From IMG/VR virus record IMGVR_UViG_3300046167_000289, positions 1 through 58,119 of that record: a stretch of DNA of 58,119 bases. One strand, 5' to 3'. This DNA comes from a virus. Below are positions 23,327 to 39,533 of the stretch, piece after piece (position 1 is the first letter of the stretch; each line of letters starts with the position of its first letter). The position numbers and the translations under genes are program-made. Under the pieces are notes generated by a model. It did no database searches. It was not told the DNA's origin and saw only the letters and a program-made list of their open reading frames with translations.

Positions 23327-25468
23327 TTAAGTACCTGCTTGACCTACAATCATACCATCTAACTGTTGTTGGGTAGTAACATCTCTTGATACTACGTATG
23401 CTTTTAATGGCTTACCGAATTGTGCTTGTATAGCGTTTATAAGTAAGTTGTCGTTAGACCTGCCTACTATGTTAAACGAAGGCTCTGCACGTTCAGTAGC
23501 ACCTGCTCCACCACTTGCTGCTCCTACATTCATAGGTGTGGATGCTGCTTCTGGTTGAAATTTCTGTCTCGCAATAACTGCTACTTGAGCCATACCTGCA
23601 CCAATAACGGCAGTCATAGCCGCAATCTTTGCAAAAGCACCTCCATATGTTTGTTTAGAAGCGTTAATACCTGCTGCTATTGTGTCAGCGACTGCAATGG
23701 ATATGTTAAACGCTTTTTGTGTATCAAACGCTTTTTTCTTAATTTTGTTTTGTTTTTTCCTTAACTCTTCGTCATTTATAGCTATTTGATTTTGTATCTT
23801 AGCTCTTTCGTCCTTAGATAGATTTTCATTTAATAATCTATCATTTAATTCTTTATTTAAAACATTGGTTTTGTTTTGCTCTATGGTTAATTGCCTATCA
23901 GTTTCTCCTTGAAGAAAGTCGCTAACACCACTCATTAACTGCTTATATTTGTCTAAGTAAAAAGTTAAATCCTCGAGGTCTTCTGGGTCTGGATTGTCAA
24001 TCTTAGGTTTTAGTATAATTGTTCCTGTTATCTTCGCAGTATCACTTATTTCATCAAAATCTTCATCCTTTATTATTTCTGCAAGACCTGCGATTTCGTT
24101 GTAATAAGAATCTACAAAACTTTTTGGTTTAACTTTTGGAGTAATAGATTCTTCTAATTCTTTTTTAAGTCTCTCTATTATCTTAGTCTCATCTTTAAAT
24201 GCTTTAGAACCTACTTTAAGATTAGCATCTCTAAATTTTTCTAAAGAGGATATAGCATCGTTATACCAATCAACAGAACCAAAAACAAGAGGTTCTTTTA
24301 CATTTTTATTAAGTTCGCCTTTAATTTTCTTTATAGCTTCCTCAGCATTAGTTATCTTTAAAGTATATTTCTGCCATTGCTCACTGCTTTCAGATAATTT
24401 ATCTCTTTGTTTTTGTAATAGTGATATTTCTTGCTTTAAACCTTTTACAGTTTTTATTGAAGACTTGTTTTGCTCGTCTCTTTTTTGTTTAAATTCATTT
24501 ATTTTATCAGCAGAATCCTTATATATAGAATTTCTTTCTTCTATAAGTTCTTTTTCTCTATCAATTAATGGATTTAATCTTCTTAGTGTTCTTTCTTGAA
24601 CCTCTCCAGTAAGTTCTATTTGAGTTGCCTTTATTCCTTCCCAATAAGTTCTATCCTTAGAAATTTTTATCAATTCTTCCTCAATATCAGAAACCCTTTT
24701 AGAGCTATCAGCAATTTCTGCATCTATTATTGCTTTTTCCTTCATTAATTCGATATAGCCCTCAATAGAAGCACCAACGTCATCCCTAAGAACCCTTGCT
24801 AAACCTTCAAATTCAGATTTTAAATCACTTGTTGATTTTTCTACCTTTTTTTGCGCTCCAAAAAAACCATCAAACAAGGAAACAACTGTAGTGATAGCTA
24901 ATACTATACCCAACGGACCCATAAGAGCAGTCCACATTTGCCTCATTGCTGCTTTAAAACTACCTGCTGCTGTTGTGGCAAAACCTAATTGAGATACTAA
25001 CTGAGTAATGTTGTTAGCCATACCTCGAATACCATAAGGTGCATCAGAGATAACTCTACCTAATTCCATAGTTGCAGATGTTGCTGCTCCTGATGAGTTT
25101 TTAAGCATACCATTAGAATTCACTAATCCTTCAGTACTTCTTCTTAGAGAATCTTTCTTTTGGTTAAGTAAATCGATAGTATTACCCATCTCTACATACT
25201 CCTTAGACGATATATCTAAAGCAGACCTTAACGAATTTAATTTACTTATTTCTGCATTTAAAGTAATTTCAGAATTCTTGTGAGCAACTACATTTCCATC
25301 TGTAGCATTTTTGTTTTTATTAATTGAAACAGTAAGGTCGTTAAAGTTCTCTTTTAACTTATTAACAGGTACTTGGGTAGCTACTATCTGACCTTTTAAA
25401 TCTCTTATTGTAGCAGTTCCACTTTCACTATCTACAATTATCTTATAAACTATATTATTATCTGCCAT
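23327..25468 (-). CDS. Tail tape measure protein
   Basis: 713 residues. The N-terminus (NNIVYKIIVDSESGTATIRDLKG) is followed by long coiled coil, then a hydrophobic segment at about 165-210 (LMGPLGIVLAITTVVSLFDGFFG), more heptad helices and a second hydrophobic Ala/Gly-rich segment near 620-665. This is the tape measure layout: the protein sets tail length and is ejected to help DNA cross the cell envelope. At about 0.15 nm per residue it predicts a tail near 100 nm. Confidence 0.82.
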   Translation of the reverse strand: MADNNIVYKIIVDSESGTATIRDLKGQIVATQVPVNKLKENFNDLTVSINKNKNATDGNVVAHKNSEITLNAEISKLNSLRSALDISSKEYVEMGNTIDLLNQKKDSLRRSTEGLVNSNGMLKNSSGAATSATMELGRVISDAPYGIRGMANNITQLVSQLGFATTAAGSFKAAMRQMWTALMGPLGIVLAITTVVSLFDGFFGAQKKVEKSTSDLKSEFEGLARVLRDDVGASIEGYIELMKEKAIIDAEIADSSKRVSDIEEELIKISKDRTYWEGIKATQIELTGEVQERTLRRLNPLIDREKELIEERNSIYKDSADKINEFKQKRDEQNKSSIKTVKGLKQEISLLQKQRDKLSESSEQWQKYTLKITNAEEAIKKIKGELNKNVKEPLVFGSVDWYNDAISSLEKFRDANLKVGSKAFKDETKIIERLKKELEESITPKVKPKSFVDSYYNEIAGLAEIIKDEDFDEISDTAKITGTIILKPKIDNPDPEDLEDLTFYLDKYKQLMSGVSDFLQGETDRQLTIEQNKTNVLNKELNDRLLNENLSKDERAKIQNQIAINDEELRKKQNKIKKKAFDTQKAFNISIAVADTIAAGINASKQTYGGAFAKIAAMTAVIGAGMAQVAVIARQKFQPEAASTPMNVGAASGGAGATERAEPSFNIVGRSNDNLLINAIQAQFGKPLKAYVVSRDVTTQQQLDGMIVGQAGT

Positions 25469-25610
25469 TTGTTAGTTTTTTTCTTTTTATACTTGTTTTT
25501 AACTCTCTAAAACTTGAAGGCATTTCATATAGTCCTTTAGCTATATTGACATCCTTGTCTTCAATCAACCACTCGTTATTTCTTAGTAATTCTAATGTTT
25601 CTCTTATCAT
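25458..25610 (-). CDS. Small protein between baseplate and tape measure genes, 50 aa
   Basis: ATG at 25610 overlaps the stop of the 694-residue gene, and its own stop overlaps the tape measure start by 11 bases. MIRETLELLRNNEWLIEDKD is helical and acidic; the end is basic (SIKRKKLTNGR). Tight coupling on both sides supports translation. Function unknown. Confidence 0.55.
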   Translation of the reverse strand: MIRETLELLRNNEWLIEDKDVNIAKGLYEMPSSFRELKTSIKRKKLTNGR

Positions 25611-27694
25611 TATATGTCGCTTAATAATTCTATCTCTGATTTACCTGTATAAAAATCTGTCTCTATCGAGTTTATCTTATAGCTTTTACCTGAAACTATA
25701 AACCTATCTGCTAACGTATACTTGTACAGTATTCTTAAAGGTAAGTAAGCAGTTATCTTAGTTAACCTATTAGACTCATTAAACACACTTGAGATATAGT
25801 TTATATGATAATTATTAAAAAGAGTCTCATTTGTTGTAACTAATTCCCATTCATCTGGCTCAGGACTAAAATTTAAAGATTGTCTATCTGATACTTGAGT
25901 TTTGCTTAAGTCAGAATTAGCAGGTGCATAGTAAGAACTAATTGGTGTATGGCTTGAAGGCTCGTTAGTTACAGGGTCTACTGAATTAACAAATGATATT
26001 CTTTCATCTGTAGCAAGTGTCTTTAAATCCATATAAAAAATCAAAGGCTTACCTATGTAACTTGATTCGTTATCGTCAACACAAAAACCCCATTGTATAT
26101 CTGTTAAATCACTTGTATTTAAATCTATTAACCTCTCGAACTTCATATGTTCGAAAGGTATCTTATAGTTATAAATACCTTCAGAAAATATCTTTAATGA
26201 ATCTCCACTATAAGTACTACCCTTGTATTCTTCTCTACCCCAATCTTTATTAAATAGTTGATTATGTTGTTTAGCTAAGAAAGTGCCTAACCCTTCATAT
26301 GTAAAAACTATTTCTCTAAAAGGTAATGCAACATTTGTCTGACTCTTGCTTACATCAACGTATTTTGTTATATCGTAAGAGTTATATGAAGAGTAAAAAG
26401 AATCTAATGTTTTAACAACCATTTCACCACCTTGAACGTAAGCAACTAAATTAAACATCCTAAATATAGATGTTAAAAAGTCAATAACCTTCATTTTAGG
26501 TATTTGTTGTTGTATATTAAATATAAATTCCTCAGCTACATTGAATGTGGTATCGTAAGTGTCTGATTGATTAGGAAACGTATCTACACTCCATCTAACA
26601 AGGTCAAAAGAAACTGCTTCGTTAGACGCTACTTGAACAGTATAACCTGCAAGTAAAGCTATAGGTATATTAAAACTTCTAATTCCTGAATCACTTGTAC
26701 TTTGATAAACAACGTTTCCAGACTGAAAAACAGTTACTGAGTATGATTTATTTATAGAAGCTGAATTTGGTTCTAACCTAAGCACCAAAGAATCTATCAC
26801 AGCATTGGTTAAAGTAAGTGCATTATTAGACATTCTACTTATACTACCTACATAATTACTCCATCCTTCTACAAAACTGACATATTCGGTAATTTGAGAA
26901 CCTGTTGTTACCCCACCTTTGGTTCTATGTAACCACATATATAAATTCTGAAAAGAATCATCATTATCAAAGAAATCTGAACTAAATACTATTCCGTATT
27001 GATTCTCTATTGCTTTTATTATTATCTTTAATTTTATAGCAAATTTTAATTCATTCCATTTAACTCCGTGGTCAAAAGGATTTCCGTTTTGGTGGTCATA
27101 GTAAAGATTACCTGTGTTTAATATAGATTCATTAGAATTATAATAAAGCCTTTGAGTATGTGTAATTAAAGGAACTTGAATTGCATTAGGATAAACTACA
27201 CCATCAACAGTCCTATCATCTACAGATTCTGTTAAATATTGTTCTATAAAGGCAGGATTCCATAGTAAATCATCACCATTCTCATCAACGCTAAAGTTAT
27301 TTAACCAATCTAAGTCAGACAACAAATCTTCACCTAATAAGTTTTTTAATGATATAGTGTTGCCAAAGAAAGTTATTCTATAGGTGTGTGCTTTATTACC
27401 TCTTAAATCAACTCCTTCAAGTTTAATATAACCAGTTTTAAAAGGTATAGAGTTTAGCTCAAGTTTAGCAGGTACTCGTATTCTTGCATCAAAACCACCC
27501 ACTATATCATTATTGTAATAGTGTTTAAATATTTTATTATTAGTTTTACTCGCAGGAAGACTAAATGTTTGAGAATATTCAGTAAATACTTTATTTACAT
27601 CTCTAACATCTTTTATAGTGTCAGTAATAGTAACACCAACATCATTAAACATTTCGGCTCTTTGTCCTTCTATGTATACTTCTACTTTCTGCAT
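25610..27694 (-). CDS. Baseplate or distal tail protein, 694 aa
   Basis: The N-terminus MQKVEVYIEGQRAEMFNDVG, then KVFTEYSQTFSLPASKTNNKIFKHYYNN and GYIKLEGVDLRGNKAHTYRITFFGN, are characteristic of large tail-tip proteins in Bacteroidota siphophages. The C-terminal SYKINSIETDFYTGKSEIELLSDI is a beta hub-like end. It lies next to the tape measure gene. Exact role (hub or Tal-like) is uncertain. Confidence 0.6.
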   Translation of the reverse strand: MQKVEVYIEGQRAEMFNDVGVTITDTIKDVRDVNKVFTEYSQTFSLPASKTNNKIFKHYYNNDIVGGFDARIRVPAKLELNSIPFKTGYIKLEGVDLRGNKAHTYRITFFGNTISLKNLLGEDLLSDLDWLNNFSVDENGDDLLWNPAFIEQYLTESVDDRTVDGVVYPNAIQVPLITHTQRLYYNSNESILNTGNLYYDHQNGNPFDHGVKWNELKFAIKLKIIIKAIENQYGIVFSSDFFDNDDSFQNLYMWLHRTKGGVTTGSQITEYVSFVEGWSNYVGSISRMSNNALTLTNAVIDSLVLRLEPNSASINKSYSVTVFQSGNVVYQSTSDSGIRSFNIPIALLAGYTVQVASNEAVSFDLVRWSVDTFPNQSDTYDTTFNVAEEFIFNIQQQIPKMKVIDFLTSIFRMFNLVAYVQGGEMVVKTLDSFYSSYNSYDITKYVDVSKSQTNVALPFREIVFTYEGLGTFLAKQHNQLFNKDWGREEYKGSTYSGDSLKIFSEGIYNYKIPFEHMKFERLIDLNTSDLTDIQWGFCVDDNESSYIGKPLIFYMDLKTLATDERISFVNSVDPVTNEPSSHTPISSYYAPANSDLSKTQVSDRQSLNFSPEPDEWELVTTNETLFNNYHINYISSVFNESNRLTKITAYLPLRILYKYTLADRFIVSGKSYKINSIETDFYTGKSEIELLSDI

Positions 27695-28831
27695 CTATCT
27701 AATATTGTTTATAGTATCGAATGATTTATCAAATTCTATTGTGTATTCTACTAATTTGTCATTTAAAGAAGTCTTGTAAGTAATATCACTTGTCTTAACA
27801 TTGATTGGTAAGACTTGCTCTCCATCTTCTGTGATGTTAGTAACCCATACCTTCTCAGATAACATCATCTGTTTAAACACCTCGTTATATTCTTCACTCA
27901 AAAATCCACTACTCAATGTAACAGATTCTTTACCTACTAAATTAAAATCTCTGTAAACGTGATTACTTCTATTGTATGTAGAGCCAGATAATATGTTTGA
28001 TTTATAAGATTCTTTTTCAACATTCATTCTTTCTACTGATTTCTTAAAGAAGTACATATCCTGTAAAGCACCAAACTTGTTTATAAACGTTACCTTTTTA
28101 GGTTCGTATTTACATTCTTCTAAAATCTCTACATTTATGATTTGAATACCATCACTATCTGAAACAACTATTTTATCTACTGCTCCTATTGAGTAATCAT
28201 TGAAGTATGCTTCTAAACATTTATTAGATTCATAATCTGTACCACCATTCTCTAAAACCCTCTCTTTAAAAGTATCCCAATTAGTAGTAGCTCCATAAAT
28301 AGAAACATACTTTATCTGTTCTGAACTTTGAGGATTTGATTGAAATATTGTAGTACCTACAATTTCATTATCTTTTAAAAATGTAACTGTTGGGCTTGAT
28401 TCGGTATAAATAGGTATTCTGAAAGTATTATCCTCTAAAACAAACAACTTTCTATTTGTAATCATTGTTGCGTCTTGCGATGTTGAAGATTGCTCAAAGT
28501 AATCATAACCATCTAAACATAAAGAAGTAAATCCATAGCCAGTAATTATATTACCACTTGCATTAAATGCTTGTAGTACAAAGTTTGCCCAAACTGGAGT
28601 AGATGAATAGTTACCATCAAAAGATGTTTCTATGTAATCTCTAATAAGTTCAGATACTTCAAATACTACTGTATCTCCTATATTTATAGCACTCTTACTT
28701 ATAACATAATCAGATTCTGGCGGAGGAGATGTTTCTATTCCAGTCCATATTTTTATAGTTAAAGTAACAGATGCTTGTAGGGCATTTGTAAATGGTATAT
28801 ATTTCGGACTTCTTACATTTATTATTGCCAT
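27695..28831 (-). CDS. Tail structural protein, 378 aa
   Basis: Predicted beta-rich throughout (SVTLTIKIWTG, FRIPIYTESSPTVTFLKDNEIVG, NKFGALQDMYFFKKS). It is found before the large tail-tip gene, which suggests a Dit-like or adaptor protein. No named family recognised by eye. The stop and start of its neighbours overlap or abut. Confidence 0.5.
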   Translation of the reverse strand: MAIINVRSPKYIPFTNALQASVTLTIKIWTGIETSPPPESDYVISKSAINIGDTVVFEVSELIRDYIETSFDGNYSSTPVWANFVLQAFNASGNIITGYGFTSLCLDGYDYFEQSSTSQDATMITNRKLFVLEDNTFRIPIYTESSPTVTFLKDNEIVGTTIFQSNPQSSEQIKYVSIYGATTNWDTFKERVLENGGTDYESNKCLEAYFNDYSIGAVDKIVVSDSDGIQIINVEILEECKYEPKKVTFINKFGALQDMYFFKKSVERMNVEKESYKSNILSGSTYNRSNHVYRDFNLVGKESVTLSSGFLSEEYNEVFKQMMLSEKVWVTNITEDGEQVLPINVKTSDITYKTSLNDKLVEYTIEFDKSFDTINNIR

Positions 28832-29340
28832 TAGTTAATAGATTTTAATTTATCAAGGCTTAACAGTATATCCTTTCTGTAACCTTCTTTTAATATTGTT
28901 TTTATTTGTTCTTTAGTTTGTTCTTGTACTGCTTGTATAAATCCACTACCTTTATATCCAAATCTCTTAGAAATACCATTTTTCTTTATACCTCTCGCTA
29001 TTGCATTAGCTATAGACCTGTTGGTATAACTCTTTATTGAAACGTATCTTCCTTTCCTGTCTCTTGGTTGTATCCCTTTGTATTTCATCCAATTCAAGAT
29101 AGAATCTACAAACTTAGGACTGACTCCTTTAGAATTACTCTTATTTTTTATACCGTCAGATAAGGCATTTGCATACTGTTCTCCAAAAACGTATAACTCA
29201 TTATCCTCAACCCTATACTTAAAAGAACTATCTAATTTACCAGAAGCCTTGAACTTATCATTCTTAGCTTCTTGCTTTAGATTCTTTCTAATTAGCTTAC
29301 CAACCTCTCTCAAGGCTAATTTTAGGTTCTCTCCCTCCAT
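28831..29340 (-). CDS. HK97 gp10-like head-tail completion protein
   Basis: 169 residues. KASGKLDSSFKYRVEDNELYVFGEQYANALSDGIKNKS and SIANAIARGIKKNGI have the small-hexamer fold pattern of gp10-like completion proteins: a basic N-terminal helix, a beta sheet and a helix. It overlaps both neighbours by one base. Assignment is by pattern and place. Confidence 0.55.
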   Translation of the reverse strand: MEGENLKLALREVGKLIRKNLKQEAKNDKFKASGKLDSSFKYRVEDNELYVFGEQYANALSDGIKNKSNSKGVSPKFVDSILNWMKYKGIQPRDRKGRYVSIKSYTNRSIANAIARGIKKNGISKRFGYKGSGFIQAVQEQTKEQIKTILKEGYRKDILLSLDKLKSIN

Positions 29341-29798
29341 TAACAGATACTTATGCCATTAGGAATCTCTATTGATATATCTACACTCCAACCAGCTAAT
29401 TCGTTGCTAAAACGTTCTTTAAATGGTTGTGCAACAGGTTGTGTTGTTACTTGATAATTAATCTCAAACAAATCACCTCTCATCAACTTCATTATTAAAG
29501 AGTTTATAACCTCAAACTGAGTATTCATAACGTCTTGTAAGTTATCATTACCATAAAACAGTTCGTAATCAGATTTCTTAGTATTGTAATCAACTATGTC
29601 TGCACAAAGTAACTTAATATCAAAAACAACTGTTCTTTCCTTGTAATTAGCACTATCTATTAGCATATGCGATAATGGAAACATAGTTGTCTTATCTAAG
29701 TCAACATCAGTTATATCTCCGTAAGTAACAGTATTTACTGATGGGTTAGTTAATAACTCGTCTTTTATGACGTCTAATATGTCGTAAACGTGTGTCAT
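29340..29798 (-). CDS. Probable tail terminator/completion protein, 152 aa
   Basis: VYDILDVIKDELLTNPSVNTVTYGDITDVDLDKTTMFPLSHMLI and VFDIKLLCADIVDYN fit a small alpha/beta protein like tail terminators. It starts on an ATGA overlap with the end of the -1 frame of the preceding gene, which means that frame is translated into this start. Confidence 0.5.
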   Translation of the reverse strand: MTHVYDILDVIKDELLTNPSVNTVTYGDITDVDLDKTTMFPLSHMLIDSANYKERTVVFDIKLLCADIVDYNTKKSDYELFYGNDNLQDVMNTQFEVINSLIMKLMRGDLFEINYQVTTQPVAQPFKERFSNELAGWSVDISIEIPNGISIC

Positions 29799-30564
29799 CT
29801 CATTTTTTGTTTTAACATTCTACTTTCTAATTCTGATTTTTCTTTTATAAACTCTAAATACATTAAACATTGGTGTAAAGGGAGTTCTGTAACTTCTCCG
29901 ATTCTTCTAACATCTTCTCCAGCGAGAGTAAATATTGCTTGATAGTCTCCCCATTTTTTACCGAATGCTCGTCCTGATGACCCTCCTGTTTCTTCTGTAA
30001 CTCTTTGAGTGTATAAGCCATCGTATAATTCCCTAATTTTGTCGCTAAACGATAAAAAAAAACCCTTGCACCAAGTGCAGCGTCTAATGGAGCGTCTCTC
30101 ATTACATCAGCCATATACTCTGTACCCTTGTAATCGTGTATAAGATACTTATCTTTACTCTTGAACTTAATTGGTCTGTAAAGAACTGCCATTGCTTTAT
30201 GGTAGTTGTCATTATCAAACATATATTTCTCTAAATCTATAAACTCACCATAACTCATTTTATCAAAGTTAGGTATCAAACCAAACTCAACAACAACATC
30301 ATCAGTTCCCTTTAAACTAAACTTATGTACAAGTTCTGGTTTCTCATTCAGTACAGATGATAAGTGGATTAAAGCATTGTCAAATACACTTAAACCTATC
30401 TTATCAACGTCTGATAACTTTATGTTACAGAATATCTCTAATACCTTTTTGTTTAGAAACTCAGCAGCATTCTCATCATCCTTATTCTTGTCGTAGACAT
30501 TAATATACTTTTGCCATTGACTCAACTTAATCCCTCTTAAATTTGCAGGTATAGTAAACTCCAT
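29795..30564 (-). CDS. Tail assembly chaperone-like gene with apparent -1 frameshift
   Basis: The 0 frame (29863-30564) gives 233 residues and holds a run of nine T on the minus strand (30054-30062), inside GARVFFYR. From there the -1 frame is open for about 85 codons. It reads a convincing protein (TEETGGSSGRAFGKKWGDYQ, LAGEDVRRIGEVTELP, CLMYLEFIKEKSELE) that ends at 29795, overlapping the next start as ATGA. That frame has no start codon of its own upstream. Joined product is about 256 residues. This resembles the G/GT frameshift of siphophage tail chaperones; a homopolymer sequencing error is the alternative. In the canonical order such a gene precedes the tape measure directly; here four larger genes intervene. 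Confidence 0.62.
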
Positions 30565-30659: not shown

Positions 30660-30908
30660 TTGACTATGAATATTTTAGATGAGAAGTTAAGTATTAGGTT
30701 TATGAAGTTTAAATGCTTAGACACTAATAGAATATACAGAGTAGTAGAAACTATCTCTACATTTGATTTAAAGAAGCCTCACTACTTCGATAAAGTTAAA
30801 GAATGTAAAGACACAGTAAAGAGAGATGATGGTGTTAGAAAGTCTTTTAAGAGGGAGCAGTTAGGTGATAGGTTTAAGAATATAGAAGGAATAATAAGTA
30901 AATACTAA
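30660..30908 (+). CDS. Small basic hypothetical protein, 82 aa
   Basis: ATGs at 30660 and 30666; the second (MNILDEKLSIRFMKF) fits the promoter spacing better. The protein is Lys/Arg/Asp-rich (KVKECKDTVKRDDGVRKSFKRE) and has no recognised family. First gene of the only plus-strand operon in the window. Confidence 0.6.
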   Translation: MTMNILDEKLSIRFMKFKCLDTNRIYRVVETISTFDLKKPHYFDKVKECKDTVKRDDGVRKSFKREQLGDRFKNIEGIISKY

Positions 30909-30918
30909 AATAACAATT

Positions 30919-31284
30919 ATGAATGAACAACAAATAACAAAAGAATCCATTTCGTACCTAAAGTCAGTACTACTGTCTCAATTACTATTAGAAGCTAATG
31001 AGGAACTTGTAGCTACCAACAGGTATAAACAAAGCCTAAAACAACAACTAAACAGAACAAACAGTCTATTAGAGCCTATCGTAAGAGAAGAGTTTGATAA
31101 TATCTACAAGACAGACCCTGATATGGCAACCAATATACTAAACAAAGTAGAGTGTGTTATAGATAAAATAGCATCATACCAGATAGAAGAGTTGATAATA
31201 CTTGAATCTATTGTAGATAAATATGAGAACAATAAAGAATGGTTCTTGAAATATGCTGAATCTGATTTCCTAAGACTTGACTAA
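30919..31284 (+). CDS. Helical hypothetical protein, 121 aa
   Basis: Starts after ACAATTATG. It is predicted nearly all helical with coiled-coil character (SVLLSQLLLEANEELVATNRYKQSLKQQLN, VECVIDKIASYQIEELIILESIVDKY). No family recognised. Next gene starts within two bases of its stop. Confidence 0.6.
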   Translation: MNEQQITKESISYLKSVLLSQLLLEANEELVATNRYKQSLKQQLNRTNSLLEPIVREEFDNIYKTDPDMATNILNKVECVIDKIASYQIEELIILESIVDKYENNKEWFLKYAESDFLRLD

Positions 31285-31285
31285 T

Positions 31286-32374
31286 ATGGAATTCAAGCTA
31301 AACAACCTTGAATATGCTTGGGTAGGCAATGAATTAAGACACATAGCAAGTGGAAATAAGTCTGATAAGTATTTCTTAGACGAAGACTTAACTATACCGC
31401 TTGTGTTCTGTAAGGGTGTTAAGATAAAGAGCTACTGGAGAAAAGAACCTAATATAGATGACTCTGTTATTAGAGACTTCTTTGGTTCATCTGAATCTGT
31501 AGAACATTACAATAAGAAGATAGAACTATCTAAATCTTTGGAGTTACAGTTCGGTAAGCATTTAATTATAGGAAACTCCTCTAAAGTAGAGTATAGAGTT
31601 AAATCTATAAATAAGATTATAGACCTAATATTCTTAGATAAGAATGGAGATATTCTTATAGGTATTGAGGTTTTATGCACAAACAAAAAAACATATAAAG
31701 ACATTAAAAAGTTTAACGAAGTAAAATTCCCAATATATGAGTATAATATTAACACAGGAGAAGTCTATCCAATTAGCTCAGGATGTACTAATACAGAAGA
31801 AATTAAAGTTTTGTCAAGACAGATTAGAGAAATTGAACAAAGTATCAGCGAAAATAAACCAAGACTTATTAGAGGCAAGGAATTCCTACTCAGACAACGA
31901 AATAGTATTAAAGGACTTAAAAAAGGAATTAAAAGAATTGATGATAAACGTAAGAAAATCTGGAGAGACTATTACAGATTTGAAGAACAAGAATCACACT
32001 ACGATTCAGAAGAAATCATTGAGAGTGAAATTAGAGAAACTAATAAAAGAAGAGAATATTTTAGAAGAGAAATTAATTTATTTAACGAAGTCGAGGAGGA
32101 ATCCCTTAGTAAAGAAATTGAATACTTTGCAGAAAAAGAAAGACAAGATATTAAGTCCGTTACAGAACAAATTGAAAACTTTGACGATAGCGAAAGAAGA
32201 GAGACTGAAGCCCTTAGAATTCAAATTGATAGACTCGAGAATCAAACTGGAGATGTTTCAAGGCTTACAAAAGGAGTATCAGCTCTTAATGCAAAACATT
32301 ACGAACATACCTCTATTGAAAATAGAAACAAAAAACTTAGAGAAGAAATTAAAAGAATTACAGAATCAAATTAA
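31286..32374 (+). CDS. CoiA-like nuclease domain with charged C-terminal helix
   Basis: I use the ATG at 31286 (362 residues). Residues about 85-160 (RVKSINKIIDLIFLDKNGDILIGIEVLCTNKKTYKDIKKF ... IYEYNI) resemble the PD-(D/E)XK core of CoiA-type competence nucleases, with D113 and E128. From about 31790 a highly charged helix continues to the stop. Over the same stretch the +1 frame is also open (31737-32378) and has better heptads and more typical Ile/Leu codons. The true C-terminus is therefore uncertain; a one-base error near 31790 or frameshifting could join the two. Confidence 0.5.
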   Translation: MEFKLNNLEYAWVGNELRHIASGNKSDKYFLDEDLTIPLVFCKGVKIKSYWRKEPNIDDSVIRDFFGSSESVEHYNKKIELSKSLELQFGKHLIIGNSSKVEYRVKSINKIIDLIFLDKNGDILIGIEVLCTNKKTYKDIKKFNEVKFPIYEYNINTGEVYPISSGCTNTEEIKVLSRQIREIEQSISENKPRLIRGKEFLLRQRNSIKGLKKGIKRIDDKRKKIWRDYYRFEEQESHYDSEEIIESEIRETNKRREYFRREINLFNEVEEESLSKEIEYFAEKERQDIKSVTEQIENFDDSERRETEALRIQIDRLENQTGDVSRLTKGVSALNAKHYEHTSIENRNKKLREEIKRITESN

Positions 32375-32378
32375 TTAA
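31737..32378 (+). CDS. Overlapping coiled-coil frame, 213 aa
   Basis: It begins with an ATG inside the nuclease gene and ends four bases after the other frame. DRLEKLNKVSAKINQDLLEA, VLKDLKKELKELMINV and NLEKKLKELQNQI are clear Leu/Ile heptads. TTA and ATA codons are used as in neighbouring genes, whereas the competing frame lacks ATA in this stretch although it uses it often upstream. It is either the real continuation of the nuclease gene after a frameshift or an overprinted gene. Confidence 0.45.
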   Translation: MSIILTQEKSIQLAQDVLIQKKLKFCQDRLEKLNKVSAKINQDLLEARNSYSDNEIVLKDLKKELKELMINVRKSGETITDLKNKNHTTIQKKSLRVKLEKLIKEENILEEKLIYLTKSRRNPLVKKLNTLQKKKDKILSPLQNKLKTLTIAKEERLKPLEFKLIDSRIKLEMFQGLQKEYQLLMQNITNIPLLKIETKNLEKKLKELQNQIN

Positions 32379-32388
32379 AACAATCATT

Positions 32389-32547
32389 ATGAAAAAAAGA
32401 CTAACACAAAAGTTACAACAACTAATAGATAACTTACCTACAGGTAACAAAAGAAAAGAAGCTAAAGAAGACCTACTAAGTCTTAAACTAAGCCAAAGCG
32501 ATTACCATTACATAATGTTAGCTGATAAGTATAAAGATAATCTATAG
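32389..32547 (+). CDS. Small basic protein, 52 aa
   Basis: ATG at 32389, 11 bases after the preceding stop. MKKRLTQKLQQLIDNLPTGN, then KRKEAKEDLLSLKLSQSDYHYI. Predicted helical. Last gene of the plus-strand operon. No family recognised. Confidence 0.55.
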   Translation: MKKRLTQKLQQLIDNLPTGNKRKEAKEDLLSLKLSQSDYHYIMLADKYKDNL

Positions 32548-33218
32548 TACATAGATAAACTATATTATTTATTTATAGTAGCAAAACAAAAATTAATTAT
32601 TTAGTTATATTAATATACAGAGTTGTAGTTCTCTTTAACCTACCAAACTTTAGTCATAATCGTAAGGCTATTGGTTCAGATACATTAAGTCTCCTTAGTA
32701 ATTGCATCTATAACCTTTATAGTCTTCGTAGCACCCAATAGATATTCAAACTAACGAGCATACCAGTTATATCAGTTAACTAACAATTAACATACATTAA
32801 GACTTTAGGAGGGTGCATATCTAACCATCGAGCATATAATTATATTTTCAAAATTAGTTTACCTGTTTATAACAAAAAGATATTAGACTATAATCAGTCT
32901 TGGACTAATTATTATATTTTCAAAATTGATATGTCAGTTTTAAACGAAAAGATATTTGACTTATGGTTGAATTCATCGAAGTGACATACTACACAATCCT
33001 AATCTTTGATTTACGCCATTATCTCTATCTATGTGGTATGTTAGTATACATTTAATATTTGAGTGGCTTAGAATGGCTTATATTGAGTTTTGAATATCGG
33101 TTTAAATTCCTATAATATATCCCCATACAGAACCAAGCAATTAAAAAAATAACTGTATAAAAAAATACTATTACAAAATGAATTATAATAGTATTAATTA
33201 ATAGGTTAAAATGTAGTT
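32548..33218. other. Non-coding region of about 670 bases with internal repeats
   Basis: No credible gene on either strand between the convergent 52-residue and 55-residue genes. It contains a 72-bp-period duplication (32839-32890 and 32911-32962). A second, weaker pair starts ACATTAAG at 32682 and 32794. It is less AT-biased than other gaps here. A structured RNA, origin or packaging-related site is possible; there is no clear terminator for either operon. Confidence 0.55.
32839..32962. repeat. Two direct repeats of period 72 bp
   Basis: ATTATATTTTCAAAATT occurs at 32839-32855 and 32911-32927. AAAAGATATTnGACT follows at 32875-32889 and 32947-32961. Both parts are 72 bases apart, so the unit was duplicated and the middle has diverged. 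The ATTTTCAAAAT core is palindromic. Confidence 0.65.
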
Positions 33219-33386
33219 TTAATTTTCTTTGTAAGCATCAAACCCTATAACCTCAACGAAACCCATATCTAAACTATTTAATAGTTGTTTATATATTTTA
33301 GTTCGTTTGGGATGTTTACAGTCTCTTATGCCTGCAATGTGTTTTGTACCGCCTTCTTTAAAGTAGTAGTGAAATTGTATTTTCAT
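33219..33386 (-). CDS. Small hypothetical protein, 55 aa
   Basis: ATG at 33386, reading MKIQFHYYFKEGGTKHIAG, then RDCKHPKRTKIYKQLLNSLD. A compact mixed protein with no recognised family. Last gene of the GP88 operon. Confidence 0.55.
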   Translation of the reverse strand: MKIQFHYYFKEGGTKHIAGIRDCKHPKRTKIYKQLLNSLDMGFVEVIGFDAYKEN

Positions 33387-33389
33387 ATA

Positions 33390-33593
33390 TTAAAAAGTTA
33401 TTTTATTAAATTGTTTTTTTATACAGCTTATTGCCTTGAAACTTTCGAACCTATTTTTATATCGATACAAATCATTTGTTAGTACATAGCTTTCGATATA
33501 AGTTTTATGCTCGTTTAAATTGTAGCAAATAAAACCTTTATTTGTTGTTAGTAATTTGATTGTTAAATTAGTGTTAGTTCTTATGGTATCCAT
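33390..33593 (-). CDS. 67-aa protein, LTNDL family member 1
   Basis: It shares a pattern with the 67-residue protein at 35364-35567: TT-K-FI-Y in the N-terminal half, then LTNDL-R and F, and a basic C-terminal KKQ. Both lie in operons driven from the twin array loci. Size and charge suit a nucleic-acid-binding regulator, but the function is not known. Confidence 0.6.
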   Translation of the reverse strand: MDTIRTNTNLTIKLLTTNKGFICYNLNEHKTYIESYVLTNDLYRYKNRFESFKAISCIKKQFNKITF

Positions 33594-33605
33594 ATTGTTT
33601 TGTTT

Positions 33606-34223
33606 TTAGTGATAGATTAATCCTACTTTGTTGTTATTTGGGTTGATGTATTTTGATGCAAACAAATCTATTTTTGAAGCGTTGATATATCCCGCTTTTT
33701 TTAGTTCTGTTTCTGTTTTAAAAATCTTTGTATGGCGGTCTTTATTTTTATCTATTAAATTAGTTTGTTTACCACTGTCCGAAAATATAAAATCAAAATT
33801 GTTTGGTATTGAATCGCTATTGTTTTTTACGATGGAAATGCTATTTGTATAAGCATAAAATTTAACGTTTGGCAATTGCTCGGCAATCTGCATCCAATCT
33901 AAAAAATACTTATTAGAATAAAAATCTCCGCTATCGTGTACCCTTAAAAAATCAACACGCTTTTTTATTATTTCCGCTTTCATTATCTCAATGAAATCTT
34001 TTTGCTTTGTTAAATTATATCTTTGCTCAAAAACCTTTGCAACGTTTGACCAAACATAAGCACCTTTTTTAGCGTAACAAAATTTAATACATTTATCCGC
34101 AAAAGGGCAAGTAATTTTCCCCTTACTTGTTTTATATGCCGTTATCCCAAAGTTAAAGACTCTTAATCCGAGTTCCTTTGATGTCTTTTTTAATTTACTG
34201 TTTTGTGTTATTATTGATTTCAT
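33606..34223 (-). CDS. Gene product 88 (GP88)-like protein
   Basis: 205 residues. KITCPFADKCIKFCYAKKGAY (Cys 39, 45 and 49) followed by FLRVHDSGDFYS (93-103) and VKFYAYTNS are the signature of the phage GP88 family. The conserved Cys cluster suggests a metal or iron-sulfur site; the reaction is unknown. It is part of the operon from the promoter at 34580 and has a CATAATTAT leader. Identification is solid at family level. Confidence 0.8.
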   Translation of the reverse strand: MKSIITQNSKLKKTSKELGLRVFNFGITAYKTSKGKITCPFADKCIKFCYAKKGAYVWSNVAKVFEQRYNLTKQKDFIEIMKAEIIKKRVDFLRVHDSGDFYSNKYFLDWMQIAEQLPNVKFYAYTNSISIVKNNSDSIPNNFDFIFSDSGKQTNLIDKNKDRHTKIFKTETELKKAGYINASKIDLFASKYINPNNNKVGLIYH

Positions 34224-34234
34224 AATTATATGTA

Positions 34235-34390
34235 TTAAAAAGGTAATTCTACTAATTTATTAATAAGTTTTATTTTTTCGTTTGCTATTTCTGTTTGGAT
34301 TTCAATCTCTAATTTATCGATATGATGCAATAAATATAAATTGTCTGTTGCCGTTGCAAAATCTCTAATTTGTTGTATTGTTTCTTTCAT
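34235..34390 (-). CDS. Small helical protein, 51 aa
   Basis: ATG at 34390, reading MKETIQQIRDFATATDNLYL and ending with KLINKLVELPF. It is a charged helix with no recognised family, in the GP88 operon. Confidence 0.5.
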   Translation of the reverse strand: MKETIQQIRDFATATDNLYLLHHIDKLEIEIQTEIANEKIKLINKLVELPF

Positions 34391-34394
34391 TGTT

Positions 34395-34538
34395 TTAATT
34401 TTTAAAATGTATTTTGTGAATACTTAAAGTTTTTAGTGTTGGATATATCCAATTTTGTTTTACTCCTTGAATCTGAAGAGATTGTATTAATAAAAATTTT
34501 AAGTTTAAAAAATCATTAATGTTTGATTGATTTGTCAT
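34395..34538 (-). CDS. Small hypothetical protein, 47 aa
   Basis: ATG at 34538, reading MTNQSNINDFLNLKFLLIQ and ending KIHFKN. First frame after the promoter at 34580-34609, about 40 bases downstream of its -7 box. No family recognised. Confidence 0.5.
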   Translation of the reverse strand: MTNQSNINDFLNLKFLLIQSLQIQGVKQNWIYPTLKTLSIHKIHFKN

Positions 34539-34579
34539 AATTTTTATTTTTAATTTGTTATTAATTCTTATTTACATTT

Positions 34580-34609
34580 CAAAGATACAACTTATTTTGG
34601 AATAAACAA
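34580..34609 (-). promoter_or_regulatory. Leftward promoter of array locus A
   Basis: Minus strand TTG (34607-34609), 19 bases, TATCTTTG (34580-34587). It drives the GP88 operon and matches the position of the 36957-36986 promoter in locus B. Confidence 0.8.
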
Positions 34610-34682
34610 CAAAAAACCAAAAAAAATGTAAAAATAACACAAAAATAATTTTTCAACGTTTTTAGCTGATGTATCAAAACTT

Positions 34683-34690
34683 TAAATTTG
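34683..34690 (+). promoter_or_regulatory. Rightward -7 box of array locus A
   Basis: TAAATTTG on the plus strand, in the same place as the rightward promoter of locus B (37051-37058). The -33 position holds TTT rather than TTG, so it is weaker or degenerate. Confidence 0.5.
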
Positions 34691-34708
34691 AAGTATAATT
34701 TTAAAGTA

Positions 34709-34867
34709 ATGAACGCATACGCAACTACAATAATTTTTTCACATACACAAATAAATTTACTATTTATTTTCAGTCTAAATAAGCTATTTAGAAGCGTTCC
34801 AAATAACAAAAATACCCCCATCATATTAAACGACCCCCATTATATTAAACATAGGGCATCATATTAA
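34709..34867 (+). CDS. Small ORF of array locus A, 52 aa
   Basis: It reads MNAYATTIIFSHTQINLLF and ends TPIILNDPHYIKHRASY. Its C-terminal part is encoded by the array repeats and ends in the same TCATATTAA as the frame in locus B, giving similar peptides (PIILN, PHYIKH, SY). It may be a real small protein or a by-product of the repeats. Confidence 0.35.
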   Translation: MNAYATTIIFSHTQINLLFIFSLNKLFRSVPNNKNTPIILNDPHYIKHRASY

Positions 34868-34905
34868 ACACCCCTCCATATTAAACAATCCCCATTATAT
34901 TAAAC
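34815..34905. repeat. 19-bp repeat array A (five units)
   Basis: Five units of CCCCATYATATTAAAC end at 34831, 34850, 34869, 34886 and 34905, so the period is 19, 19, 17 and 19 bases. Read on the minus strand each is GTTTAATATRATGGGG. The array lies between the rightward -7 box and the terminator at 34912. The same unit is found in array B. Confidence 0.85.
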
Positions 34906-34911
34906 ATAAAG

Positions 34912-34944
34912 CAAAAAAAAAGCCTCGTTAAAGGCTTTCTTTGT
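34912..34944. terminator. Bidirectional terminator after array A
   Basis: AAAGCCT (34919-34925) pairs with AGGCTTT (34932-34938). An A run lies on the left and a T-rich run on the right, so it can stop both the leftward 35.1-36.9 kb operon and a rightward transcript through array A. Confidence 0.75.
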
Positions 34945-34945
34945 T

Positions 34946-35149
34946 TTAATACCATTCTAAAAAATTAATAATTGAATCGTATTCACTATAGATTGATTCG
35001 TTATTGTATTTAGACTCGTAAAACTCTTTATAGTATCCTTTAATGGATGGAAAGGCATCATCATAGGGTAACTCCTTTAGAGGATGTTTTGTGTCTGCAA
35101 ACTGCGTTAAATTGTAGAATAGAAATTCGTGATAATTTATTGTTGTCAT
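34946..35149 (-). CDS. Small hypothetical acidic protein, 67 aa
   Basis: It reads MTTINYHEFLFYNLTQFADT and ends EYDSIINFLEWY. Aromatic and acidic with no recognised family. Last gene of the operon from the 36957 promoter; the terminator follows immediately. Confidence 0.6.
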   Translation of the reverse strand: MTTINYHEFLFYNLTQFADTKHPLKELPYDDAFPSIKGYYKEFYESKYNNESIYSEYDSIINFLEWY

Positions 35150-35152
35150 ATC

Positions 35153-35359
35153 TTATAATTGTTTTAAGGTTTCTTTTAATCTATCTTTTAAATCTTTGTT
35201 TTCTTTGTTCACCTCTTTAATAGCTAAATAGAGTAAGGAATCTAAATCTTGTAGTAAATTACGAGCATTGAATACTACTGTATTATTGTCATTTTGAATA
35301 TGTACTTCGCCATCTTGCGACCAAATTGTGTGTGTTTCGTGTATATATGTATGTTTCAT
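35153..35359 (-). CDS. Small hypothetical protein, 68 aa
   Basis: N-terminal beta hairpin (THTIWSQDGEVHIQNDNNTVVFNARN), then a charged helix (LLYLAIKEVNKENKDLKDRLKETLKQL) with heptads. No family recognised. It lies three bases from the next gene. Confidence 0.6.
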   Translation of the reverse strand: MKHTYIHETHTIWSQDGEVHIQNDNNTVVFNARNLLQDLDSLLYLAIKEVNKENKDLKDRLKETLKQL

Positions 35360-35363
35360 AATC

Positions 35364-35567
35364 TTATAAATTTATATTAATTATTCTTAATTGTTTTTTT
35401 ACTATATCAGTCAGCAGAAACTTACTGTTGATGCCAAACTTTTTTCTATGCCTTGTCAAATCATTTGTAAGAATCATCTTATCAAGATTATTATTTGTTT
35501 CAGTATAGACTATAAAATCTTTTTTAGTAGTGTAGATTTGTACTGCTTTAAGGATGTTTATGTTCAT
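35364..35567 (-). CDS. 67-aa protein, LTNDL family member 2
   Basis: Related to the protein at 33390-33593 (shared YTTKKDFIVYTE-like half, LTNDLTRHRKKFG and a basic IVKKQLRI end). The start is fixed by the AACTAAATAATATG leader. Its operon begins at array locus B, while member 1 belongs to the operon of array locus A. Confidence 0.62.
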   Translation of the reverse strand: MNINILKAVQIYTTKKDFIVYTETNNNLDKMILTNDLTRHRKKFGINSKFLLTDIVKKQLRIININL

Positions 35568-35590
35568 ATTATTTAGTTTTATTGTTTCTA

Positions 35591-36028
35591 TTAATCTTCA
35601 AATAATGTTTCTATCTTATACTGCACATCATCTATTCCACTTAAAATATCTTGTACATCATCGTGGTAATCATCATTATGGCTTTTAGTTAAATCCATTA
35701 TAATTCTGTAGGCATCATCTAATAGTTCGATTGATGTTTTTATATTCTGCTTTTTATTCTGTACCGTATTATACGCTTGAGAACCCGATTTTATAAGTTT
35801 ATCCCAATTATCAACCTCTCTTACTAATATATCATCATCATCTCTTGTCTCTATAATCTCAACAACATATTGTTCATTTGAGATGCAGTTACAAAGTATT
35901 TGTATTTGATATAAATCATCTTCTGCTACCCAATCTTTACCAAATATTTTTTCTGCTTGTCTTTCTAAATTGTTTCTTCCAACGAAGCCATATGTAGATG
36001 TATATCTACCTTCTAAATTATTTTTCAT
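35591..36028 (-). CDS. Hypothetical protein, 145 aa
   Basis: Acidic, mixed fold: LERQAEKIFGKDWVAEDDLYQIQ, IIETRDDDDILVREVDNWDKLI and a long C-terminal helix. No family recognised. Start set by the AACTAAATAATATG leader shared by four genes of this operon. Confidence 0.6.
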   Translation of the reverse strand: MKNNLEGRYTSTYGFVGRNNLERQAEKIFGKDWVAEDDLYQIQILCNCISNEQYVVEIIETRDDDDILVREVDNWDKLIKSGSQAYNTVQNKKQNIKTSIELLDDAYRIIMDLTKSHNDDYHDDVQDILSGIDDVQYKIETLFED

Positions 36029-36039
36029 ATTATTTAGTT

Positions 36040-36453
36040 TTAATTATAATTATTTTCATATTTTACATTTAACTGTTTGTACATTTGATAATCCATACCT
36101 ATTTGTTCTAAAATGTATTGTGTTGTTTCGCCATCTAAATCAGCAGATTTAAGTTTACTTATTAATACTTCAATTTTATTTACTTTTATAAATTGGACTA
36201 CTGCATCGTATGTAGTTTTAAACTTACTACCTATTGTTTCTATATGAAATAACTCTTCTACAGAATGGTCAGTATTGTTGCTTACTTTACATCTACTCTC
36301 GACTATTGTAAATTCATAACCAAGACTTTCTATCTTCTCAACTACACGCATCAGCCAATCCCAAGAGGTGTTATAGTTAGGTGTGACATACTCGCCCATC
36401 TCTTGATGGTCTTCCATTCCCATAAATTCTGCTATTAGTTTATTGTTATTCAT
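36040..36453 (-). CDS. Hypothetical protein, 137 aa
   Basis: I choose the ATG at 36453 because it carries the operon's AACTAAATAATATG leader; a longer frame from 36486 would overlap the previous gene. MNNNKLIAEFMGMEDHQEMGEYVTP begins it, followed by NTSWDWLMRVVEKIESLGY, a pattern seen in other phage hypothetical proteins. Confidence 0.65.
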   Translation of the reverse strand: MNNNKLIAEFMGMEDHQEMGEYVTPNYNTSWDWLMRVVEKIESLGYEFTIVESRCKVSNNTDHSVEELFHIETIGSKFKTTYDAVVQFIKVNKIEVLISKLKSADLDGETTQYILEQIGMDYQMYKQLNVKYENNYN

Positions 36454-36454
36454 A

Positions 36455-36916
36455 TTATTTAGTTTTGATTCCATATTGTTTTTCAATGTTATAATTAATT
36501 GCTCCTTTTATGGTGTTTTTAGGTGATTTTACCAAAAGCAATAGTCTTGCAATCTCTTCCATAACTTCTTCCTCTTTTGTCTCCTCGCAATAACAATCAC
36601 TATATCTTTCTATAAATAATTTTCTAACTAAATCCATATGATACCAATCCAAGCAATTTCCATACATCTGATTAAAATCTTCTCCTTTGCCATCATTCCA
36701 TTGTTTAACCCAATTTAGATATGGGGAATTATCACTAAACATAACCTCGTTAACAAGTTCACATATTGTATCGTAGTACATCTGATGACCACCTCCTCCA
36801 TCTAACCAAGCAAAATATTCAAGCCTTACAAGAGGATACATATCTGATGCACACGCACACAGAATCATATCATAATTTTCTTTAGTAATTTGTTTTTGTT
36901 TTTCGTTTAATAACAT
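36455..36916 (-). CDS. Hypothetical protein, 153 aa
   Basis: First gene of the early operon, about 40 bases after the -7 box at 36957. It is rich in Trp, Tyr and Cys (YLNWVKQWNDGKGEDFNQMYGNCLDWYH) and acidic. No family recognised. Start set by the AACTAAATAATATG-like leader. Confidence 0.62.
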   Translation of the reverse strand: MLLNEKQKQITKENYDMILCACASDMYPLVRLEYFAWLDGGGGHQMYYDTICELVNEVMFSDNSPYLNWVKQWNDGKGEDFNQMYGNCLDWYHMDLVRKLFIERYSDCYCEETKEEEVMEEIARLLLLVKSPKNTIKGAINYNIEKQYGIKTK

Positions 36917-36956
36917 ATTATTTAGTTTTAATAGATAACTTAATTGCTAACTGAGG

Positions 36957-36986
36957 CAAATATACATCTTTTTTTTAATTACACAA
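36957..36986 (-). promoter_or_regulatory. Leftward promoter of array locus B
   Basis: Minus strand TTG (36984-36986), 19 bases, TATATTTG (36957-36964). It drives the operon 36916-34946 and pairs with the divergent rightward promoter at 37029. Confidence 0.82.
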
Positions 36987-37276: not shown

Positions 37277-38488
37277 TTATCTTATCACATAAACTCCAGA
37301 GTTTACTCCTTGAACTAAATACATTAATCCATAACGGATTGCATCCAAAAAATGATTAAACTTATCTATTGGTGCTTCACCCTTATCTTTCCATACATAG
37401 TTGTTTAGCTCTCTTATTATACCGTGAGAACCTCTATCTACTATTATCTCATAATCTTGCATAAGTGCTATACCAGATAATATACTACCTTTCTTCTTTA
37501 CTGTAGGTTTTATGTTAAGACCCAATGTTTTCATCTCTGATATTAAACGTGGCTCACTATTATCACAAATAATTAAATCCATACCACACTCTCTTCTATT
37601 CATACCTGCTATCTCAGATGTGTTTAGATTAGGTTTTCCGTAGATTTCCTTAACCCAAACCTTTCTTGCGTTCTTATCTACCGAAATCTTCACAAGTGTC
37701 GTTAAATCGGCTGAAAATCCAAAATCTTGTCCATAGCAAGTAAGTTCTGTAGGAATAAAGTCTCCAACTCTCCATTTTCTTATAATAGTACCCTCTGCTT
37801 TCTCAAGCCAACCTCCTAATATTTGGTGCTGGTATTTATCTGGTCTCTTACGTTTCATCTCGTAAATTCTCTCTAAGAATGATTGAGATAAGTTCTTCTT
37901 ATTATCTTTGTAAGTTGTATGAACATAAGTAACGTTACCTTTAATCATATTAGAAGCTGCCAATACGTTTTCATTTTGGAAGAACCTCTGATATATCCAA
38001 TGCTCTTTAGTTGTTGGATTCAGTATAAGAATAACTCTGTTCTGTTTAGTTTGTGAACGTATAGAGAAGTCAATCTTATCAAATGTACCCTCATCTACAA
38101 GTTCCTCTGCTTCATCTACAACAAATGTTGTTATACCATTCAAGGATTTAAGTGCAGCAGTTTGGTTACCAGATGACGTTCTAATACCTTTAAATATTAT
38201 AGAGCTACCTGTCTTTAGGTTCATAATCTCATCTTTAGTTATCCTAAAGTCATCGTGAACTCCCATTAAGTTAATCTTCTCAATAAATTCAGGTATAATA
38301 GATGTATGTGCTGACATCATTGTATAACGTGAGAACAGTATCTTATGACCTTGTTCATAGGTTAGGTTAAGTAAGAATACGTTTATACCAAACGACTTAC
38401 CACTACCCCTACCTCCTGTAACAACAAAATACCTGCTATCATTCTTGAAAACAGGTATGTATTTTTCGTGTATGTCTATCTTACTCAT
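37277..38488 (-). CDS. terL: Terminase large subunit (PBSX/XtmB type)
   Basis: 403 residues. Walker A TGGRGSGKS (24-32), Walker B FVVDEAEEL (122-130), coupling motif around LILNPTT, and nuclease-domain acidic residues in YGQDFGFSADLTTL, LIICDNSEP and FNHFLDAIRYG. It packages DNA by ATP hydrolysis and cuts concatemers. It overlaps the small subunit by eight bases. Only one copy is in the window. Confidence 0.88.
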   Translation of the reverse strand: MSKIDIHEKYIPVFKNDSRYFVVTGGRGSGKSFGINVFLLNLTYEQGHKILFSRYTMMSAHTSIIPEFIEKINLMGVHDDFRITKDEIMNLKTGSSIIFKGIRTSSGNQTAALKSLNGITTFVVDEAEELVDEGTFDKIDFSIRSQTKQNRVILILNPTTKEHWIYQRFFQNENVLAASNMIKGNVTYVHTTYKDNKKNLSQSFLERIYEMKRKRPDKYQHQILGGWLEKAEGTIIRKWRVGDFIPTELTCYGQDFGFSADLTTLVKISVDKNARKVWVKEIYGKPNLNTSEIAGMNRRECGMDLIICDNSEPRLISEMKTLGLNIKPTVKKKGSILSGIALMQDYEIIVDRGSHGIIRELNNYVWKDKGEAPIDKFNHFLDAIRYGLMYLVQGVNSGVYVIR

Positions 38489-39529: not shown

Positions 39530-39533
39530 TGTT

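What the first reader, a model, noticed from the sequence alone, without database searches (positions are those of the whole stretch)
29795..30564. Apparent -1 frameshift in a tail-chaperone-like gene at a T9 run
The 0 frame contains nine T on the minus strand (30054-30062). In the -1 frame, about 85 codons beyond it are open and encode a well-formed protein (GRAFGKKWGDYQ, LAGEDVRRIGEVTELP). This frame has no start of its own and ends in an ATGA overlap with the next gene at 29798. This fits the programmed frameshift that makes the G and GT tail chaperones. Unusually, the gene is separated from the tape measure by four larger genes.
Basis: partly seen in the sequence, partly recalled or inferred. 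Interest (0 to 1): 0.68.

Follow-up and report, generated by a model that had tools for sequence, protein, structure and literature searches.

The report
Programmed frame switch in phage tail gene
A run of nine Ts lets this marine Bacteroidota phage make two proteins with different tails from one gene, probably a tail-assembly chaperone; the run is never shorter than nine in hundreds of relatives, which suggests that the RNA-copying enzyme, and not (or not only) the ribosome, does the slipping.

Summary
The minus-strand T9 (30054-30062) lies in a 233-aa frame. A -1 frame stays open for 86 codons beyond it, overlapping the 0 frame for 63 codons. In 378 distinct relatives, down to about 30% protein identity, including cultured Nonlabens phage P12024L, the second domain always lies in the -1 frame after an uninterrupted run of 9 (304) or 10 (74) Ts. 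Other genes of the same contigs hold no run of 9 or more in 1.33 Mb. Both frames of the overlap are under purifying selection (dN/dS about 0.3-0.5 each). One gene therefore should yield a 233-aa and a 256-aa protein.

The tail-chaperone (G/GT) reading is the best guess. It rests on architecture and conserved synteny (TerL-G/T-four genes-tape measure). No chaperone family or solved fold matched.

A ribosomal site needs only T_TTT_TTT, yet the run never falls below nine, it occurs in all three registers, its eighth T never becomes C although that change is silent in both frames in 304 of 378, and no RNA structure follows. I lean to RNA-polymerase slippage (0.57) over ribosomal frameshifting (0.38).

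The parts
29863..30564 (-). 0-frame product ('G'-like), 233 aa; the tail after the T run (63 codons) is also coding in the -1 frame
   Evidence: ORF; PHROG phrog_32199 E=2.4e-20; relatives; AF2 model mean pLDDT 86
30054..30062 (-). T9 slippage run, codons GTT TTT TTT TAT
   Evidence: run of 9 or 10 in 378/378 distinct relatives
29795..30055 (-). -1 frame extension ('T'-like domain, 86 codons plus TGA) joined to residues 1-170 to give a 256-aa product
   Evidence: no ATG/GTG/TTG before codon 65
29866..30054 (-). dual-coded overlap, 63 codons read in both the 0 and the -1 frame
   Evidence: both frames under purifying selection; synonymous-resampling null
29340..29798 (-). next gene, 152 aa (phrog_30964), ATGA overlap with the extension; conserved neighbour
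28831..29340 (-). 169 aa, tail completion/Neck1-like (phrog_5, weak, E=3e-5)
   Evidence: counterpart in P12024L
27695..28831 (-). 378 aa, unknown function (phrog_35281), conserved in order
25610..27694 (-). 694 aa, unknown function (phrog_38559), conserved in order
23327..25468 (-). 713 aa, probable tape measure protein (weak profile hits, phrog_18891 E=1.2e-5)
   Evidence: same position in P12024L and the L485 prophage
37277..38488 (-). large terminase subunit, first anchor of the module (directly upstream of G in P12024L; 6.7 kb away here)

Best explanation
One phage gene makes two proteins by a programmed -1 frame switch at a run of nine Ts. Most expression stays in frame and gives a 233-aa protein; a minority switches at the run and gives a 256-aa protein with the same first 170 residues and a different C-terminal helical domain. 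Shown here: the run, the -1 relation and both reading frames are conserved and selected in 378 relatives. Inferred: the pair act like the G and GT tail-assembly chaperones, the common part coating the tape measure protein and the rare extension recruiting tail-tube subunits. Inferred, and my choice of mechanism: host RNA polymerase slips on the T9 run and adds one U, so that ordinary translation of the U10 message gives the long form. Ribosomal slippage at the contained U_UUU_UUU would give the same proteins and may contribute. The confidence given is for polymerase slippage as the main route; the frame switch itself, by whichever machine, I hold at about 0.95.
For: Frame switch: 378/378 distinct loci have the second domain in the -1 frame after a T run, including P12024L; also a prophage in a 3.9 Mb Flavobacteriaceae contig. 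Both frames are selected: dN/dS 0.30-0.48 (0 frame) and 0.33-0.52 (-1 frame); 0-frame stop-creating changes occur at 0.7% against 11% for doubly nonsynonymous changes; codon-position profile flat in the overlap, third-position-biased outside it. Resampling synonymous codons leaves the 0 frame open in 1.4% and the -1 frame in 0.2% of trials. Polymerase slippage: run length always 9 (304) or 10 (74), never 7 or 8, although the ribosomal heptamer needs 7. In-phase T_TTT_TTT as a plain T7 run occurs 82 times in other ORFs of these contigs, T>=9 never. When a flanking T is missing the run sits one base over and keeps nine: TTT TTT TTT CTG/CTC (12 sequences, one clade) and GGT TTT TTT TTG (L484), so all three registers occur. 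T8->C is silent in both frames in 304/378 yet never seen, although U_UUU_UUC is in the same high-efficiency class as U_UUU_UUU for E. coli ribosomes (PMC4066793). No downstream RNA structure signal (mean z near 0). Nine A/T is the length at which many bacteria show avoidance, and conserved run length is the published criterion for purposeful slippage (PMC1088944). Chaperone reading: order TerL-G/T-four genes-tape measure in three divergent phages.
Against: No transcript, proteomic or reporter data. The tail-chaperone frameshifts described in the sources I read are treated as ribosomal. The first and ninth T are also demanded by hydrophobic/aromatic residues in one or both frames (V/L/I/F before; Y/W/L/F after; L/F in the -1 frame), and other first/second codon positions nearby are equally invariant, so run length alone is not proof. 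The clade with CTG/CTC is one event and L484 another. Run avoidance elsewhere may reflect DNA-level slippage. No match to any known tail-chaperone profile or solved structure.
Confidence: 0.57

Rival explanations
1. Classical programmed -1 ribosomal frameshifting: two phenylalanyl-tRNAs slip together on U_UUU_UUU and the ribosome continues in the -1 frame, as in lambda G/GT.
For: The heptamer is present in the right phase in 378/378; low-level G-T ribosomal frameshifting is widely conserved in long-tailed phages (PMC5009743), with 6-7% in tested HK97-like genes (PMC3711429); U_UUU_UUU is shift-prone in E. coli (PMC4066793).
Against: Any run of nine or more contains an in-phase heptamer in every register, so its presence is not independent evidence. 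Runs of 7 or 8 and the doubly silent T8->C (giving U_UUU_UUC, of the same efficiency class) are never seen. No stimulatory structure.
Confidence: 0.38
2. Sequencing or assembly error: the true run is ten T and the gene is one continuous frame.
For: Homopolymer runs are error-prone; the window itself looks like a chimeric or duplicated assembly.
Against: 378 distinct loci from many independent metagenomes, including a GenBank phage genome, and chromosomal contigs all show the same -1 relation. Where a 10-T run occurs (74) the second domain is still in the -1 frame. The 0-frame tail is itself under purifying selection.
Confidence: 0.01
3. The extension is a separate protein translated from its own start or by coupled re-initiation, not a fusion.
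For: In P12024L the extension was annotated as its own 55-aa gene starting with an ATG at the 0-frame stop.
Against: In the window no ATG/GTG/TTG precedes codon 65 of the 86-codon extension, while conservation reaches back to the T run; in P12024L it also reaches back to the T run.
Confidence: 0.03
4. The frame switch is real but the protein is not a tail chaperone; it serves another step of tail or connector assembly. (This rival concerns function and is independent of the rivals on mechanism.)
For: No chaperone family match; the gene lies next to the terminase in relatives and before the connector-like genes, not next to the tape measure gene; solved-structure search empty.
Against: A two-product switch with a small helical extension inside the tail operon is the hallmark of G/GT genes; chaperones are known to diverge beyond sequence recognition (PMC5009743 notes low sequence similarity between phages).
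Confidence: 0.2

Closest known systems
Lambda G/GT tail assembly chaperones and their counterparts in other long-tailed phages (-1 programmed ribosomal frameshift)
   Same: One gene, two products sharing an N-terminal part; the minor product carries a C-terminal extension from the -1 frame; member of the tail operon, with the tape measure gene downstream.
   Different: No recognisable sequence or fold match; the switch site is 63 codons before the end of the short form, so the overlap is dual-coding, whereas lambda shifts near the 3' end of g (PMC5009743); the site is an invariant T9-10 run; the gene lies four genes from the tape measure gene and, in relatives, next to the terminase.
Thermus thermophilus dnaX and IS-element transposases decoded by transcriptional slippage at A9/T9 runs (PMC1088944, PMC5009743)
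   Same: Conserved homopolymer of nine or more A/T in coding DNA, of a length avoided in other genes, giving two C-termini.
   Different: Here a phage tail gene, and no RNA has been sequenced.
Nonlabens phage P12024L/P12024S genes 40 and 41 (PHROG phrog_32199; gene 41 corresponds to the extension)
   Same: Homologous (32% identity); same T9, same -1 relation, same gene order.
   Different: Deposited as two separate hypothetical genes; overlap only 25 codons after the heptamer.

Membership tests
Frameshifted tail assembly chaperone (G/GT type) | Two products from one gene, the longer through a -1 shift | tested here: met
   Comparative evidence only: 378/378 loci, both frames selected; the proteins themselves have not been seen
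Frameshifted tail assembly chaperone (G/GT type) | Located in the tail module, classically between major tail protein and tape measure gene | tested here: inconclusive
   In the tail module, but four genes upstream of the tape measure gene, in three divergent phages
Frameshifted tail assembly chaperone (G/GT type) | Sequence or fold similarity to a known chaperone family | tested here: not met
   No significant match to a Pfam, NCBIfam, function-annotated PHROG or PDB entry; one of 81 members hits NCBIfam tail_chap_PVL at E=0.029, which is chance level. Not strictly defining, because known chaperones are mutually dissimilar.
Frameshifted tail assembly chaperone (G/GT type) | Short form binds the tape measure protein; extension binds the tube protein; neither in the virion | not testable with these tools
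   Needs biochemistry or proteomics
Programmed -1 ribosomal frameshift site | X_XXY_YYZ heptamer in the 0 frame | tested here: met
   T_TTT_TTT in phase in 378/378, but unavoidable in any T>=9 run
Programmed -1 ribosomal frameshift site | Stimulatory element (downstream structure); not obligatory | tested here: not met
   No folding signal above dinucleotide shuffles in 81 sequences
Programmed transcriptional slippage site | Uninterrupted A/T run of at least nine, length conserved in homologues, avoided in other genes | tested here: met
   304 x T9, 74 x T10, none shorter; none in 1.33 Mb of other ORFs
Programmed transcriptional slippage site | Transcripts with added or missing U | not testable with these tools
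   Needs RNA sequencing

The most novel reading that the evidence does not exclude
A large, mostly uncultured group of Bacteroidota phages sets the ratio of its two tail-assembly proteins by RNA-polymerase slippage at a T9-10 run instead of by ribosomal frameshifting, with a 63-codon stretch that encodes both C-termini at once.
Probability: 0.5. Interest if true: 0.75.

Novelty: new variant of a known kind. Interest (0 to 1): 0.62.

Why it matters
The fused second protein is missing from the public annotation of this phage group: in P12024L the parts are two hypothetical genes, and the matching PHROG families have no function. Recognising it gives a probable tail-chaperone assignment to hundreds of genomes. 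If the switch is made by RNA polymerase, a structural ratio thought to be set by the ribosome in nearly all long-tailed phages has a second solution, testable with one RNA-seq experiment. The 63-codon dual-coded overlap is also a clean natural case of two C-termini evolving on the same DNA.

Tried and rejected
Sequencing error (rejected by 378 relatives). Independent start for the extension (no ATG/GTG/TTG before codon 65). RNA structure after the run: no signal in 81 sequences in four window sizes; no Rfam match. Heptamer phase as proof of ribosomal shifting: rejected after noting that every T>=9 run contains one. Naming the protein by family: Pfam, NCBIfam and PDB by sequence empty or chance-level; Foldseek against BFVD found only uncharacterised phage proteins, and the PDB none. 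Flavobacterium phage 6H, a weak structural hit: I read the two stretches around its candidate genes by eye and saw no comparable site, which is not an exhaustive search. A tree showed the CTG/CTC-following sequences to be one clade, so I count them as one event. The third-frame stop close after the run (373 of 378) fits slippage but coding constraints could cause it, so I give it no weight.

Full report
What is in the sequence. On the minus strand, ORF 30564-29863 (233 codons) contains GTT TTT TTT TAT, nine T at 30062-30054. In the -1 frame the DNA stays open from 30055 to a TGA at 29797-29795 that overlaps the ATG of the next gene; there is no ATG, GTG or TTG in this frame before codon 65 of the extension. 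Products would be 233 aa and 256 aa (170 shared residues plus 86). The window is itself the whole virus record, 31% GC.

It is not an error. Six of seven scans of IMG/VR with the G-side protein and one with the extension, together with one of GTDB contigs, gave 378 distinct loci carrying both domains, scored with profiles built from alignments A4 and A5. In every one the second domain is in the -1 frame and follows an in-phase T_TTT_TTT inside a run of 9 (304) or 10 (74) Ts; none is shorter. Two further genome loci read afterwards, L483 and L484, also have nine. Cultured Nonlabens phage P12024L (32% identity) has the same site, CTT TTT TTT TAT, with the extension deposited as a separate gene. 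L483/L485 lie in a 3.9 Mb contig, so at least one is a prophage in a Flavobacteriaceae chromosome. In 1,385 other ORFs of these contigs (1.33 Mb) there are 122 T7 and 9 T8 runs and none of 9 or more.

Both frames are used. The 0 frame continues past the heptamer for a median of 62-63 codons (55-69 in the central 90%; 25 in P12024L) while the -1 frame is also open. Resampling synonymous codons for the -1 protein keeps the 0 frame open in 1.4% of trials, and resampling for the 0-frame protein keeps the -1 frame open in 0.2%. In 384 pairs of sequences, dN/dS in the overlap is 0.30-0.48 for the 0 frame and 0.33-0.52 for the -1 frame; changes silent in both frames are common (rate 0.69), changes creating a 0-frame stop rare (0.007); and the third-position excess seen on either side of the overlap disappears inside it. 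So the short form's 63-residue tail is real protein, not read-through to a chance stop. The pairs share ancestry, so these counts describe selection but are not independent trials.

What the protein is. It belongs to phrog_32199 (function unknown). AlphaFold2 gives a confident N-terminal domain (residues 1-165, pLDDT about 95) followed by a long helix that contains the switch site; the extension alone is helical with moderate confidence. Foldseek finds only uncharacterised phage proteins and no PDB fold; Pfam, NCBIfam and PDB sequence searches give nothing above chance. Gene order is conserved in the window, P12024L and the L485 prophage: terminase, G/T gene, phrog_30964, a Neck1-like or phrog_29822 gene, phrog_35281, phrog_38559, tape measure (with three small genes before it in P12024L), then protease and probable major capsid protein. 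In P12024L the last two follow across the ends of the linear record. The separation from the tape measure gene is therefore a fixed property of the group. Two products sharing an N-terminus, in a tail operon, is the G/GT pattern of lambda, in which G binds the tape measure protein and T binds the tube protein (PMC5009743). I take tail chaperone as the best functional guess, at about 0.8.

How the switch works. Two machines could do it with identical proteins as the result: the ribosome slipping back one base on U_UUU_UUU, or RNA polymerase adding one U to the message. The heptamer does not decide, because any run of nine or more contains an in-phase heptamer in any register. Four observations favour the polymerase. 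First, the ribosome needs seven T, yet runs of seven or eight never occur here, although an in-phase T7 heptamer is tolerated 82 times in other genes. Second, where one flanking T is missing the run extends at the other end: TTT TTT TTT CTG/CTC in one clade of 12 and GGT TTT TTT TTG in L484; all three registers thus occur, always with at least nine. Third, the eighth T could change to C without altering either protein in 304 of 378 sequences. Elsewhere 108 of 528 TTT-Phe pairs have TTC second, and U_UUU_UUC is in the same high-efficiency class as U_UUU_UUU for E. coli ribosomes, with U_UUC ahead of U_UUU among tetramers (PMC4066793); yet here it is never C. Fourth, no RNA structure signal follows the run. 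Nine A or T is the length at which many bacteria show avoidance in genes, and a run conserved in length in all homologues is the published criterion for purposeful transcriptional slippage (PMC1088944). In 373 of 378 the third frame, which a lost U would open, meets a stop within three codons, as expected under slippage, though coding constraints could also cause it.

Against this, the tail-chaperone frameshifts described in the sources I read are treated as ribosomal; the first and ninth T are also fixed by the amino acids they encode, and neighbouring first and second codon positions are equally invariant; the two register shifts are only two events; and the behaviour of Bacteroidota RNA polymerase and ribosomes at U9 has not, to my knowledge, been measured. 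I put polymerase slippage at 0.57 and ribosomal frameshifting at 0.38, with both acting together possible.

Novelty. A -1 switch in a tail-chaperone-like gene is a known kind. New here are an unrecognised, widespread family with an invariant T9-10 site, a 63-codon dual-coded overlap, a gene order in which the chaperone-like gene follows the terminase, and sequence evidence that the switch may be transcriptional. Full-text searches found no paper describing transcriptional slippage in a tail chaperone gene, but the library holds only open-licence papers.

Noticed in passing
window 2621-21198 versus 39500-58119: Two copies of about 18.6 kb spaced about 37 kb apart, 94-99.8% identical, with replaced segments around 12.6-13.6 kb and 14.4-15.8 kb. 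The record looks like two strains of a ~37 kb phage joined (tandem prophages, or a mis-assembly of population variants). The frame-switch gene occurs once.
   Followed up: partly
window 31277-32374 and 31737-32378 (+): Two long plus-strand ORFs (365 and 213 aa) overlap by about 640 bases in different frames, between the terminase and the tail module; no Pfam match. Possibly chance in lysine-rich AT-rich DNA.
   Followed up: partly
window 30660-37200: A 6.7 kb stretch with genes on both strands separates the terminase from the G gene; in P12024L and the L485 prophage the two are adjacent, so this is probably inserted cargo. It includes a GP88-family gene (33606-34223, PF17338).
   Followed up: partly
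window 17869-38488; P12024L JQ823123; L485 6860-17398: Tail genes lie between the terminase and the head genes (protease, capsid), the reverse of the usual head-before-tail order.
   Followed up: partly
other ORFs of all fetched contigs: Phe-Phe pairs strongly avoid TTT TTT: TTC TTT 543, TTT TTT 420, TTT TTC 108, TTC TTC 71, although TTT is 79% of all Phe codons.
   Followed up: partly
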